The notes under the pieces were generated by a model. It was not told the origin of the DNA and searched no databases. It worked only from the letters and a program-made list of their open reading frames with translations. From CAVQYV01 sp963718295 [NCBI: uncultured Methylomirabilota bacterium] (GTDB lineage: Bacteria > Methylomirabilota > Methylomirabilia > CAVQYV01), in assembly GCA_963718295.1 (NCBI GenBank), contig CAVQYV010000004.1, positions 558,001 to 622,000 of the forward strand: DNA of 64,000 bases, read 5' to 3'. The position numbers were made by a program, and so were the translations under genes. This document shows positions 5,003-46,490 of the stretch, piece after piece; within the stretch, counting starts at the first letter, position 1; each line of letters starts with the position of its first letter.

Positions 5003-5278
5003 ATGTCCGTTTCGGTATCTTTCGCCTCCCCCTTTCTAAGGCTTGCCGGTGGTTCGAAGGACGTGGAGGGAAACGGGAGGAATGTGGGGGAGCTGATCGA
5101 AGCATTGGAATCTCGATTCCCAGGCATAAGGGCCTCCATCCTGGATGGGCAGGGGCGGATCTATCCTCATCTGAATATTTACTTGAACGAGAGGGATATC
5201 GGAACCCTAAGTGGCCTTGATACACCCCTCCAAGAAGGGGATCAGGTATTCATCGTCCCCGCGATCGCCGGGGGCTGA
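5003..5278 (+). CDS. MoaD/ThiS-family ubiquitin-like sulfur carrier protein
   Basis: Predicted 91-residue beta-grasp protein. The sequence contains the PFLRLAGG and VGELIEALESRFPG blocks typical of MoaD, a HLNIYLNERD strand, and the pattern LQEGDQVFIVPAIAGG with the C-terminal Gly-Gly needed for adenylation and thiocarboxylation. In this family an E1-like enzyme (MoeB/ThiF) activates the tail and the carrier then donates sulfur to molybdopterin, thiamine or cysteine synthesis. No E1, molybdopterin or thiamine gene is nearby. The next two genes are selD and a JAMM peptidase, so a role coupled to them is possible (inference). The ATG at 5003 follows GGAGGAGAG at 4992-5000; the longer frame from 4982 is disfavoured. 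Confidence 0.85.
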   Translation: MSVSVSFASPFLRLAGGSKDVEGNGRNVGELIEALESRFPGIRASILDGQGRIYPHLNIYLNERDIGTLSGLDTPLQEGDQVFIVPAIAGG

Positions 5279-5341
5279 TAGGGCGAGGCAGCGAGCGAAG
5301 GATTTCAGCGAAGGAAAGAAAAGGAGGAAGAGAAAGATCAA

Positions 5342-6397
5342 ATGGGAATGGGTAAAGAGAAAGAAGTTCGCTTGACTTCTTTTTCCCACGGGGCCGGCTG
5401 AGCCTGCAAGGTCAATCCCTCTGACCTGGCGCAGGTCTTGCGCCTCATCCCGTCTCAATGTGATTCAAGGCTCTTGGTAGGTTCTAATACCCTGGATGAC
5501 GCGGCAGTCTACCAATTACGTGAGGATCTGGCGTTGGTCCAGACCGTGGATTTTTTCACCCCCGTGGTCGACGATCCGTACGATTTCGGGAGCATCGCGG
5601 TCGCCAATGCCTTGAGCGATGTCTATGCCATGGGAGGGACGCCTCTGGTTGCCCTCAATATCGTGGCATTTCCCTCTCGCCAGCTCCCGCTGGAGATCCT
5701 GGCGGAGATTCTGAAAGGTGGAGTTGCCAAGGCCAAAGAGGCTGATGTATGTATTGTTGGCGGACATACCATCGACGATCCGGAGCCCAAATACGGCCTT
5801 TCAGTGACGGGCGTGATCGATCCCCAGCGGGTAGTGAGGAATAGCGAGGCAAGGGCAGGCGATCTCTTGGTCCTTACCAAGCCCCTGGGTGTGGGAATCA
5901 TCACTACCGGCATCAAAAGAGGACTATCCTCTCCCGAGTTGATCAAGAAGGTGACCGAAGTGATGGCAGCTTTGAATCGGGAGGCAGCAGAAGCTATGCT
6001 TGAAGTTGGAGTAAATGCCTGCACGGATGTCACGGGCTTTGGCCTCCTGGGCCACCTGTGGGAGATGACTTCTGGGAGTGGAGTCGGGGCCACGGTGAGG
6101 CTGGGCCACATTCCGGTGATGGGGGAGGCCTGGGAACTGGTGAGAAAAGAAGTGGTGCCGGGGGGCACCCGTGCCAACCACAAATTCCTGCAGGAGAAAG
6201 TGATCTGGGAGCAGATCTCTTTCGAGGAGCAACTCATCCTCTCCGATGCCCAAACCTCAGGTGGCCTACTCATTGCTGTTCCCCCTGAGAATTCCGGAAG
6301 GCTCTTGGAGAAGTTGCACGAACGGGGCGCCCTCGAAATGGCGGTGATCGGAGAAATCACTTCAGACGATCCTTTGCGAATCAGGGTGAAAAGGTAG
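5342..6397 (+). CDS. selD: Selenide, water dikinase SelD, itself a selenoprotein (in-frame UGA = Sec)
   Basis: Makes monoselenophosphate from selenide and ATP, the selenium donor for selenocysteine and 2-selenouridine. The frame from ATG 5342 (or 5348) runs through a TGA at 5399-5401 to the stop at 6395-6397, giving 351 residues, close to the roughly 347 of E. coli SelD. Around the TGA the protein reads LTSFSHGAG-U-ACKVNPSDL: the TGA sits exactly at the catalytic Cys of the GAGCxCK motif, and the partner Lys follows three residues later. Downstream are the DDAAVY, VDFFTPVVDDPYDFG and VGGHTIDDPEPKYG blocks of the ATP site. AGGAGG lies at 5322-5327. Annotating only from the TTG at 5438 would lose the active site. 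A bSECIS-like hairpin follows the UGA. The gene lies between a MoaD-like carrier and a JAMM peptidase. Confidence 0.93.
5399..5401 (+). other. In-frame UGA decoded as selenocysteine
   Basis: The codon replaces the nucleophilic Cys of SelD in the conserved SHGAG-U-ACK context. Homology to SelD continues without a break or frame change on both sides, which argues against a real stop. SelD enzymes with Sec at this site are known, so the biochemistry is established; use in this organism requires SelA/SelB/SelC encoded elsewhere. Confidence 0.92.
5428..5444 (+). promoter_or_regulatory. Candidate bacterial SECIS hairpin in selD
   Basis: A six-pair stem GGCGCA/TGCGCC closes a five-base loop GGTCT whose first base is G. 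The loop begins 33 bases after the UGA, within the 16-37 base range described for bacterial SECIS elements, and the GGUCU loop resembles the SelB-binding loop of E. coli fdhF. A second hairpin (AGGTCA 5409-5414 with TGACCT 5422-5427) lies between the UGA and this one and is an alternative. The fold is read by eye only. Confidence 0.6.
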
Positions 6398-6409
6398 GAG
6401 GGCCCTATT

Positions 6410-6907
6410 TTGTTTCTGACTGAGGCGATCTGTCAGGCCATGGTCGGACATGCCCGATCCACTGCGCCGAACGAGGCTTGTGGGATTTTGGCGGGCATGA
6501 AGGAAAAGGTGCTGAAGTTCTATCCGGCCAGCAATCGGGAGGCAAGTCCCACCCATTATCTCCTCGAGCCTGCAGAGCAGTTTGAGATCTTCCGCGAGGT
6601 GGAAGAGAGGGGTTGGGGGTTGCTGGGGATCTTCCATTCCCACCCGGAGGCACCCGCCTTCCCCTCGCAACAGGATATTGAGATGGCCTACTATCCTGAC
6701 GTAATCCACTTCATTGTGTCCCTGCGGAAAGGAAGTGCCCCCGAGCTGCGAGGCTTCTGGATTCGGGGCGGGAAGGTGGTTGAGGAAGAAATCCAGATCG
6801 GCCCGGAGAGGGAGGGAGAGAATTCGACTTGTGATAATCCGAAGCGGGTTGCTGACCACAAGGCCCTTTTGAGGAAAGATCGGTTGGCGATGACCGATTG
6901 CAACTGA
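6410..6907 (+). CDS. JAMM/MPN+ metallopeptidase (M67 family)
   Basis: Predicted 165-residue zinc isopeptidase of the prokaryotic JAB1/MPN+ type. The catalytic Glu is in NEACGILAG near residue 23, and the zinc motif H-x-H-10x-D is complete in FHSHPEAPAFPSQQD near residues 76-89. Bacterial relatives cleave at the Gly-Gly end of ThiS/MoaD-like carriers or their conjugates, which fits the carrier gene two positions upstream. The TTG start is supported by AGGAGGG at 6396-6402, which overlaps the end of selD; the 12-bp gap implies co-translation. The last roughly 35 residues are polar and not conserved in appearance. Whether the target is the neighbouring carrier is inference. Confidence 0.85.
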   Translation: MFLTEAICQAMVGHARSTAPNEACGILAGMKEKVLKFYPASNREASPTHYLLEPAEQFEIFREVEERGWGLLGIFHSHPEAPAFPSQQDIEMAYYPDVIHFIVSLRKGSAPELRGFWIRGGKVVEEEIQIGPEREGENSTCDNPKRVADHKALLRKDRLAMTDCN

Positions 6908-46312: not shown

Positions 46313-46490
46313 GTCTAACACGCCGCTGGTGTGCCCTGCAAAGCCATCGTCTGCTCACCGGTGCAAGTCCGGTCGTGGTAACCGCCAGGGGACCACGTAG
46401 CAGGCATCCAGTGCATCTGAGCGATCGGATGTGCTGAAGCGATGTATCCCCCGGGAGAACGGGGAGCCAAGCAGCAGCCCCTAATATCAA
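46313..46490 (+). other. Half attC site with probable group II intron relic
   Basis: GTCTAAC at 46313-46319, the exact complement of the R' core before the cassette, begins a second attC whose right half is missing. In its place lies about 165 bp with RNA-like features: CACCGGTGCAAGTCCGGTC, the pattern GTGCAAGTCCGG common in domain I of bacterial group II introns, then paired GC arms (CCCCCGGGAGAACGGGG). Group IIC-attC introns are known to insert in attC sites. No reverse transcriptase gene remains. The intron call rests on motif resemblance only. Confidence 0.35.

What the first reader, a model, noticed from the sequence alone, without database searches (positions are those of the whole stretch)
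5003..6907. Compact operon of a MoaD/ThiS-like carrier, selenoprotein SelD and a JAMM peptidase
Three genes in one direction with gaps of 63 and 12 bp: a Gly-Gly-ending ubiquitin-like carrier, selD and an intact H-x-H-10x-D JAMM peptidase. Carrier-JAMM pairs are known with an E1-like enzyme and cysteine synthase in sulfur transfer (established for related systems). Here selD takes the central place and no E1 is visible. This suggests a carrier-based route for delivering sulfur or selenium, or control of selenide supply by carrier thiocarboxylation and JAMM cleavage (inference). I do not know a described system with this composition.
Basis: partly seen in the sequence, partly recalled or inferred. 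Interest (0 to 1): 0.75.

Follow-up and report, generated by a model that had tools for sequence, protein, structure and literature searches.

The report
Selenium enzyme in sulfur-carrier protein operon
A bacterial gene trio links a ubiquitin-like sulfur-carrier protein and its trimming protease with the enzyme that activates selenium, and other bacteria repeat this pairing, often in an operon with a cysteine-making enzyme, which suggests that they handle sulfur and selenium together.

Summary
In detail: a CysO/MoaD-like carrier ending in Gly-Gly (5003-5278), SelD with an in-frame TGA at codon 20 (5342-6397) and an intact JAMM protease (6410-6907) form a three-gene run. The pairing recurs. Of 80 Actinomycetota JAMM loci examined (60 high-ranked, 20 lower-ranked), 44 have SelD upstream on the same strand and 40 of those 44 also have a carrier; the usual order is selD-JAMM-(MoeB-type E1)-carrier-(CysM). 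Among 45 high-ranked Actinomycetota genomes with both SelD and this JAMM, the two lie within 4 kb in 41 (the search profile favours linked JAMMs). SelD-JAMM pairs also occur in Chloroflexota. SelB is over its cut-off in 43 of 50 linked genomes, so this is the selenocysteine-pathway SelD. Best reading: a CysO/CysM/Mec-type carrier module that has taken in SelD and joins cysteine (sulfur) and selenocysteine (selenium) supply. My literature searches found no description of it. Direct selenium hand-over from carrier to SelD is untested. The exact order carrier-selD-JAMM was seen only in the window, which holds no E1 or cysteine synthase; its genome is not held. New variant of a known kind.

The parts
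5003..5278 (+). Ubiquitin-like sulfur carrier (ThiS/MoaD superfamily, CysO/SAMP1-like), C-terminal AIAGG
   Evidence: PF02597 52.4 bits; best solved relatives 4n6e_B and CysO 3dwg_C; groups with ThrC-NIL-linked carriers in a low-resolution tree
5342..6397 (+). SelD, selenophosphate synthetase (selenide, water dikinase), with selenocysteine at codon 20
   Evidence: best solved relative 3u0o_A
5399..5401 (+). in-frame TGA, read as selenocysteine at the catalytic Cys/Sec site (HGAG-U-ACK)
   Evidence: relatives have TGA or a Cys codon at this site where it could be read
5396..5446 (+). hairpin starting at the TGA codon, candidate bacterial SECIS element
   Evidence: -23.4 kcal/mol, z -3.2, 1 of 200 shuffles as good
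6410..6907 (+). JAMM (Prok-JAB) metallopeptidase, Mec/desampylase-like, E22 and H76-S-H78-x10-D89 intact; about 30 extra C-terminal residues
   Evidence: PF14464 82.1 bits; alignment; AlphaFold model mean pLDDT 84, closest to 2kks and to P. furiosus JAMM1 incl. its SAMP2 complex 5lda

Best explanation
The trio is a rearranged, shortened form of a recurrent chalcogen-handling gene group: a CysO/CysM/Mec-type sulfur-carrier module that includes the selenocysteine-pathway SelD. Inferred working, by homology to the mycobacterial pathway: an E1 (in the operon of many relatives, not in this window) adenylates the carrier's terminal glycine, and sulfur is loaded there as a thiocarboxylate. A PLP enzyme (CysM; perhaps a threonine-synthase-like enzyme in other lineages) turns it into a carrier-amino-acid adduct. 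The JAMM protease cuts the adduct, frees the amino acid and resets the carrier. SelD meanwhile makes selenophosphate from selenide and ATP for selenocysteine. Encoding them together would coordinate cysteine and selenocysteine supply and would keep sulfur protein-bound, so that free selenide is left for SelD. Shown: the gene families, the intact motifs, the recurrent linkage and the match with SelB in relatives. Inferred: the coupling. Not shown: any direct hand-over from carrier to SelD.
For: Families and motifs. SelD upstream of the JAMM on the same strand in 44 of 80 examined Actinomycetota JAMM loci, 34 of them within 400 bases. Tight spacing in the top loci: JAMM/E1 overlap of 4 bases in 16 of 19, carrier-CysM gaps of 1-18 bases in 19 of 25. 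SelD within 4 kb of the JAMM in 41 of the 45 high-ranked Actinomycetota genomes that have both. SelB over its cut-off in 35 of those 41, and in 4 of the 16 JAMM genomes without a neighbouring SelD, exactly the 4 that have SelD elsewhere. In the SelD tree the JAMM-linked rows fall in four places and need 6 label changes, at least 4 forced by starred branches. The CysM of L066 is closest to M. tuberculosis CysM (3dwg_A), the E1 of L246 to MoeB. CysO/CysM/Mec+ mechanism: passages of PMC3227635.
Against: No CysM or E1 in the window. Of the 80 SelD loci nearest to the window's SelD, 75 showed no such JAMM in the fetched flanks, some of them short. In Nitrospirota SelD was near the JAMM in 0 of 30 loci with 1.5 kb flanks and 0 of 20 with about 4.5 kb (18 of these 20 are among the 30), and in 0 of the 8 close Methylomirabilota loci with short flanks. 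Only 4 of 20 lower-ranked Actinomycetota loci have SelD. In 7 of the 44 loci SelD lies 1.2-3.6 kb away, in the five read with other reading frames between, at least one on the other strand. Profile A1 was built mainly from SelD-linked JAMMs (11 of 13 rows), which biases the top ranks. No fusion of SelD with a module member was found. The tree's changes may be gains or losses, and the window's place apart from the Chloroflexota group rests on unstarred branches.
Confidence: 0.5

Rival explanations
1. Direct selenium delivery: the E1-activated carrier takes up selenide (or perselenide) as a selenocarboxylate and hands it to SelD; JAMM removes blocking adducts and recycles the carrier.
For: SelD and JAMM are the constant pair while the carrier's PLP neighbour varies (CysM in Actinomycetota; ThrC-NIL-linked carriers elsewhere in eight of nine Chloroflexota genomes). 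The operon E1 examined (L246) has no rhodanese domain by its length and family matches, so the sulfur or selenium donor is open. In L002 a TusA-like gene whose best NCBIfam match (49.3 bits, below the cut-off of 79) is the selenium-linked YedF lies next to selD.
Against: No protein selenocarboxylate turned up in the listings. Many carrier-CysM-JAMM loci lack SelD, so the carrier module does not need it. In the Chloroflexota SelD-JAMM pairs other than L002 no carrier was seen in the fetched flanks, which are short in most; L027's contig ends just after the JAMM.
Confidence: 0.15
2. Synteny without function: selD came to lie beside the mec-cysO-cysM locus in a few ancestors and was kept there by shared expression; there is no metabolic coupling.
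For: Most linked loci fall in one Actinomycetota clade of the SelD tree (41 of 51 linked rows). All module parts also occur without SelD.
Against: Linkage appears in four places of the SelD tree with different gene orders. Linked SelD sequences are diverse (39 clusters at 70% identity among 49), yet adjacency is kept. Random placement within 4 kb upstream in 45 genomes of about 3 Mb predicts about 0.03 cases (arithmetic; it ignores shared descent and the bias of the profile).
Confidence: 0.25
3. Regulation of SelD by conjugation: the carrier is attached to SelD (or to other selenocysteine-pathway proteins), as known from recall for SAMP and TtuB conjugation, and the JAMM removes it.
For: The JAMM resembles desampylases (NF041370 82.9 bits, below the cut-off of 130) and its model is close to the P. 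furiosus JAMM1-SAMP2 complex.
Against: No direct evidence; the CysM company of relatives points to metabolism.
Confidence: 0.06

Closest known systems
Mycobacterial CysO-CysM-Mec+ (MoeZ) cysteine pathway
   Same: Carrier is similar to CysO (3dwg_C); JAMM in the role of Mec+; the CysM of the L066 operon is closest to M. tuberculosis CysM.
   Different: SelD is in the operon. The window has neither CysM nor E1. In the relatives read, the E1 is a MoeB-type protein of 265-289 aa, too short for the rhodanese domain of MoeZR.
ThiS/MoaD-E1-JAB-cysteine synthase operons, rows 4b-4e of Iyer, Burroughs and Aravind 2006 (PMC1779556; passages seen)
   Same: Carrier, E1, JAB peptidase, cysteine synthase or SirA/TusA in sulfur metabolism.
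   Different: SelD is not named in the text: 'selen' matched once, in an author name of the reference list, and 'seld' 0 times.
SelD neighbourhoods of selenium metabolism (PMC2432076, PMC4210487, PMC9312934, PMC5322559; passages seen)
   Same: SelD with SirA/TusA-like sulfurtransferases, YedE/YedF, YbbB, SelA/SelB; L002 has TusA/TusB/TusD-like genes near selD.
   Different: Word counts in the main texts: Mov34 0, JAB 0, JAMM 0, MoaD 0, ubiquitin 0.
Archaeal SAMP1-UbaA-HvJAMM1 system
   Same: NCBIfam profiles of SAMP1 and desampylase match the window's carrier and JAMM, that of UbaA matches the E1 of L246.
   Different: All three are below their curated cut-offs (57.1 of 60, 82.9 of 130, 343.5 of 450 bits); different gene company.

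Membership tests
SelD (selenide, water dikinase) | TIGR00476 over cut-off, catalytic Cys/Sec present | tested here: met
   402.8 bits, cut-off 125; U20 at the site
SelD of the selenocysteine pathway (not orphan) | SelB in the same genome | tested here: inconclusive
   Window: no genome held, but its own TGA implies Sec decoding. Relatives: SelB over cut-off in 35 of 41 Actinomycetota and 8 of 9 Chloroflexota SelD-JAMM genomes
CysO-CysM-Mec+ cysteine pathway | Gly-Gly ubiquitin-like carrier similar to CysO | tested here: met
   but in a short-protein tree the window carrier, a long branch, groups with ThrC-NIL-linked carriers
CysO-CysM-Mec+ cysteine pathway | intact JAMM protease | tested here: met
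CysO-CysM-Mec+ cysteine pathway | cysteine synthase CysM encoded with the carrier | tested here: not met
   none in the window; present in 29 of 44 Actinomycetota SelD-JAMM loci
CysO-CysM-Mec+ cysteine pathway | E1 that activates the carrier | tested here: inconclusive
   none in the window, genome not held; in 19 of 44 loci of relatives
CysO-CysM-Mec+ cysteine pathway | JAMM hydrolyses the carrier-cysteine adduct | not testable with these tools
   needs biochemistry
SAMP/desampylase system | NCBIfam equivalog cut-offs for SAMP1 and desampylase | tested here: not met
   57.1 of 60 and 82.9 of 130 bits

The most novel reading that the evidence does not exclude
A ubiquitin-like carrier protein that carries selenium as a C-terminal selenocarboxylate and feeds SelD, with a JAMM protease resetting the carrier: a protein-bound selenium relay that keeps selenide apart from sulfide.
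Probability: 0.13. Interest if true: 0.88.

Novelty: new variant of a known kind. Interest (0 to 1): 0.6.

Why it matters
How cells deliver scarce, toxic selenide to SelD in a large excess of sulfide is, to my knowledge, still open. A recurrent gene group that joins SelD to a carrier-based cysteine pathway gives named partners to test. It also extends the known carrier/JAMM sulfur operons to selenium.

Tried and rejected
Chance adjacency was rejected as the main reading; synteny without function remains a rival. Molybdopterin synthase as the carrier's partner: related carriers mostly sit with CysM or ThrC-NIL genes, but MoaE was not searched for. Orphan SelD (a third selenium trait) was set aside because of the SelB match. 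The genome-contig scan with the JAMM confirmed nothing; the SelD scan gave 80 loci. JAMM searches in the phylum of G001 (Latescibacterota by its title; 0 of 16) and in the phylum of G013 (labelled Myxococcota; 1 of 193) gave almost nothing; they used E <= 1e-25, stricter than the 1e-20. The origin of the window was not settled: its RecA is 76% identical to one Methylomirabilota genome, the best of 17 tried. Clustering of stop-to-stop frames around the linked loci was too noisy in this G+C-rich DNA to name further conserved neighbours. The promoter/terminator scan was uninformative. Literature searches showed nothing on SelD with a JAMM, CysO or CysM in the titles and abstracts listed; of these only the papers named in this report were opened. 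The library holds only open-licence PMC papers. The term 'ThiS' was useless because it matched the word 'this'.

Full report
1. Observation. The three genes are present and intact on the + strand, at the stated gaps of 63 and 12 bases. The carrier is a ThiS/MoaD-superfamily protein ending AIAGG; its nearest solved relatives are a ThiS/MoaD family protein (4n6e_B) and M. tuberculosis CysO (3dwg_C). SelD has an in-frame TGA in HGAG-U-ACK, scores 402.8 bits against TIGR00476, and a stable hairpin starts at the TGA. The JAMM starts at TTG behind AGGAGG and keeps E, H-S-H and D. Its model (mean pLDDT 84, alignment of six) is closest to 2kks and to P. furiosus JAMM1, including its SAMP2 complex. A HhH-GPD/NUDIX glycosylase gene lies upstream on the other strand and electron-transfer flavoprotein genes follow. 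No E1 or cysteine synthase was found in the 64 kb by phmmer with relatives' proteins; no genome is held.

2. First recurrence. A scan of one genome per species with the window SelD kept the best 80 loci. A JAMM similar to the window's was found in 5 of the 80, downstream of SelD on the same strand (L002, L027, L029, L038 titled Chloroflexi; L066 titled Actinobacteria), and a similar carrier in 2 (L002, L066). The other 75 showed none in their flanks, some of which are short. L066 reads selD-JAMM-carrier-CysM. L002 reads carrier, CysM, TusD-like, TusB-like, TusA/YedF-like, selD, GcvH-like, JAMM.

3. Chloroflexota. Of 400 sampled genomes 168 have the JAMM at E <= 1e-15 and 313 a SelD at E <= 1e-60. 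Comparing the listed places by eye, SelD is upstream of the JAMM on the same strand, directly or one gene away (G002), in 6: G002, G231, G342, G392, G420, G506. Both lists were cut, so 6 is a lower bound. Of the 30 best JAMM loci, 15 have CysM, 13 the carrier, 1 SelD, and 9 none of the queried genes within about 1.5 kb. In ten SelD-JAMM genomes (nine Chloroflexota and G009) the SelD-linked JAMM is the strongest Prok-JAB match of the genome and each genome has at least two ThiS/MoaD matches. In eight of the nine Chloroflexota (not G011) a carrier similar to the window's sits beside a threonine-synthase-like gene and a small NIL-like gene (the NIL name is recalled, NCBIfam had no match).

4. Actinomycetota. 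In the phylum of L066's genome, 143 of 246 sampled genomes have the JAMM at E <= 1e-20 with profile A1. I fetched 60 of the 61 highest-ranked loci (all but L066's own) with up to about 4.5 kb on each side and 20 between rows 63 and 129 of the list. SelD is upstream on the same strand in 40 of 60 and 4 of 20: 34 within 400 bases, 3 with a CysM between, 7 at 1.2-3.6 kb. Of the 20 top loci without SelD, 4 are cut by a contig end within 1 kb upstream. Of the 44, 40 also have the carrier, 29 CysM and 19 a MoeB-type E1. In the top loci JAMM and E1 overlap by 4 bases in 16 of 19, and carrier-CysM gaps are 1-18 bases in 19 of 25. One locus (L287) continues, by eye, with MurI and RdgB, as I recall for the mycobacterial mec-cysO-cysM region. 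A1 was built mainly from SelD-linked JAMMs (11 of 13 rows), so the top ranks are biased; the drop from 40 of 60 to 4 of 20 shows it.

5. Genome-level test. 66 genomes were searched with the SelD and SelB families: 41 Actinomycetota with SelD near the JAMM (the 40 top-ranked and L066's), 16 Actinomycetota with the JAMM but no SelD near it, and 9 Chloroflexota. The 4 top-ranked genomes whose locus is cut were left out, and so were the 20 lower-ranked. Of the 16, 12 have no SelD at E <= 1e-25 and 4 have it elsewhere (G751, G645 as a fragment, G715, G574). So where both are present they are neighbours in 41 of 45; counting only loci within 400 bases or with a CysM between, 34 of 45. SelB is over its cut-off in 35 of the 41, in those same 4 of the 16, and in 8 of 9; four of the six misses among the 41 (G530, G624, G677, G707) show partial matches that may be broken SelB. 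SelD is single in nearly all (G690 has two pieces, G002 two genes, G514 a weak second match). It is therefore most likely the SelD of selenocysteine synthesis, and no orphan trait is needed. In 50 linked SelDs the catalytic site read Sec in 17, Cys in 21 and was not resolved in 12.

6. Number of origins. In a FastTree SelD tree of 149 rows the 51 JAMM-linked rows (window included) need 6 label changes, at least 4 forced by starred branches. In the drawn tree they fall in four places: an Actinomycetota group (41), a Chloroflexota group (8), L002, and the window. Changes may be gains or losses, and the branches between the window and the Chloroflexota group are not starred. The JAMM tree is poorly resolved (11 linked rows, 6 changes, 1 forced). 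This fits repeated linkage or one old linkage lost many times. In a carrier tree of 104 rows the window carrier, a long branch, sits in a 26-row set (support 99) with all 22 ThrC-NIL-linked carriers rather than with most CysM-linked ones. So SelD and JAMM look like the constant pair, and the carrier's PLP neighbour varies.

7. Where it is absent. In Nitrospirota 102 of 148 genomes have the JAMM, but SelD was near it in 0 of 30 loci with 1.5 kb flanks and 0 of 20 with about 4.5 kb (18 of them among the 30). Whether those genomes have SelD was not tested. In the phylum of G005 (Methylomirabilota) 8 of 95 genomes have a close JAMM (E < 1e-35), all 8 beside CysM and none with SelD in the short flanks. 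The order carrier-selD-JAMM was not seen outside the window in the loci annotated here.

8. Mechanism. PMC3227635 (passages) states the mycobacterial pathway: MoeZR activates CysO and forms its thiocarboxylate, CysM with O-phosphoserine makes a CysO-cysteine adduct, Mec+ releases cysteine. The L066 CysM is closest to that CysM, the L246 E1 to MoeB. The best reading is therefore a carrier-based cysteine module with SelD added, coordinating sulfur and selenium supply. Direct selenium hand-over is possible and testable but has no evidence beyond genome context.

9. Literature. Iyer et al. 2006 (PMC1779556, passages) describes carrier-E1-JAB-cysteine synthase operons and does not name SelD. Passages of four papers on SelD neighbours (PMC2432076, PMC4210487, PMC9312934, PMC5322559) name SirA/TusA-like proteins, YedE, YedF, YbbB, SelA and SelB; the JAMM/JAB/Mov34/MoaD terms searched in each had no match. 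PMC2948915 on archaeal ubiquitin-like proteins had no match for 'selen' or 'SelD'. Ten full-text searches listed no report of the linkage. Subscription papers and preprints are not in that library.

10. Verdict. Real and recurrent; a new variant of a known carrier operon. The linkage is the solid result; the mechanism is inference.

Noticed in passing
window 46355-46489 (+): Rfam match to a group II intron domain (RF02003, 57.8 bits, gathering score 49).
   Followed up: no
L120 61-819, L132 1183-1878; L116 1943-3163, L086 57-1451, L088 1933-3243, L237/L288: Stop-to-stop frames in which a carrier runs on without a stop into a JAMM (2 loci) or into CysM (4 genome places; L237 and L288 are the same one), as if the carrier were made as a precursor that needs trimming.
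   Followed up: partly
L361-L364, L369-L371, L375, L379 (Nitrospirota); L175-L182 (Chloroflexota): A carrier beside a threonine-synthase-like gene and a small NIL-like gene, in these Nitrospirota also near E1 and JAMM: possibly a carrier-dependent route to a threonine-family or sulfur amino acid.
   Followed up: partly
L002 686-5508: Sulfur-relay cluster: carrier, CysM, TusD-like, TusB-like, TusA/YedF-like, selD, GcvH-like lipoate-domain protein, JAMM.
   Followed up: partly
SelD genes of L281-L339: Within one kind of operon SelD is a selenoprotein in some genomes and a cysteine form in others (17 Sec, 21 Cys, 12 unresolved of 50 linked SelDs).
   Followed up: partly
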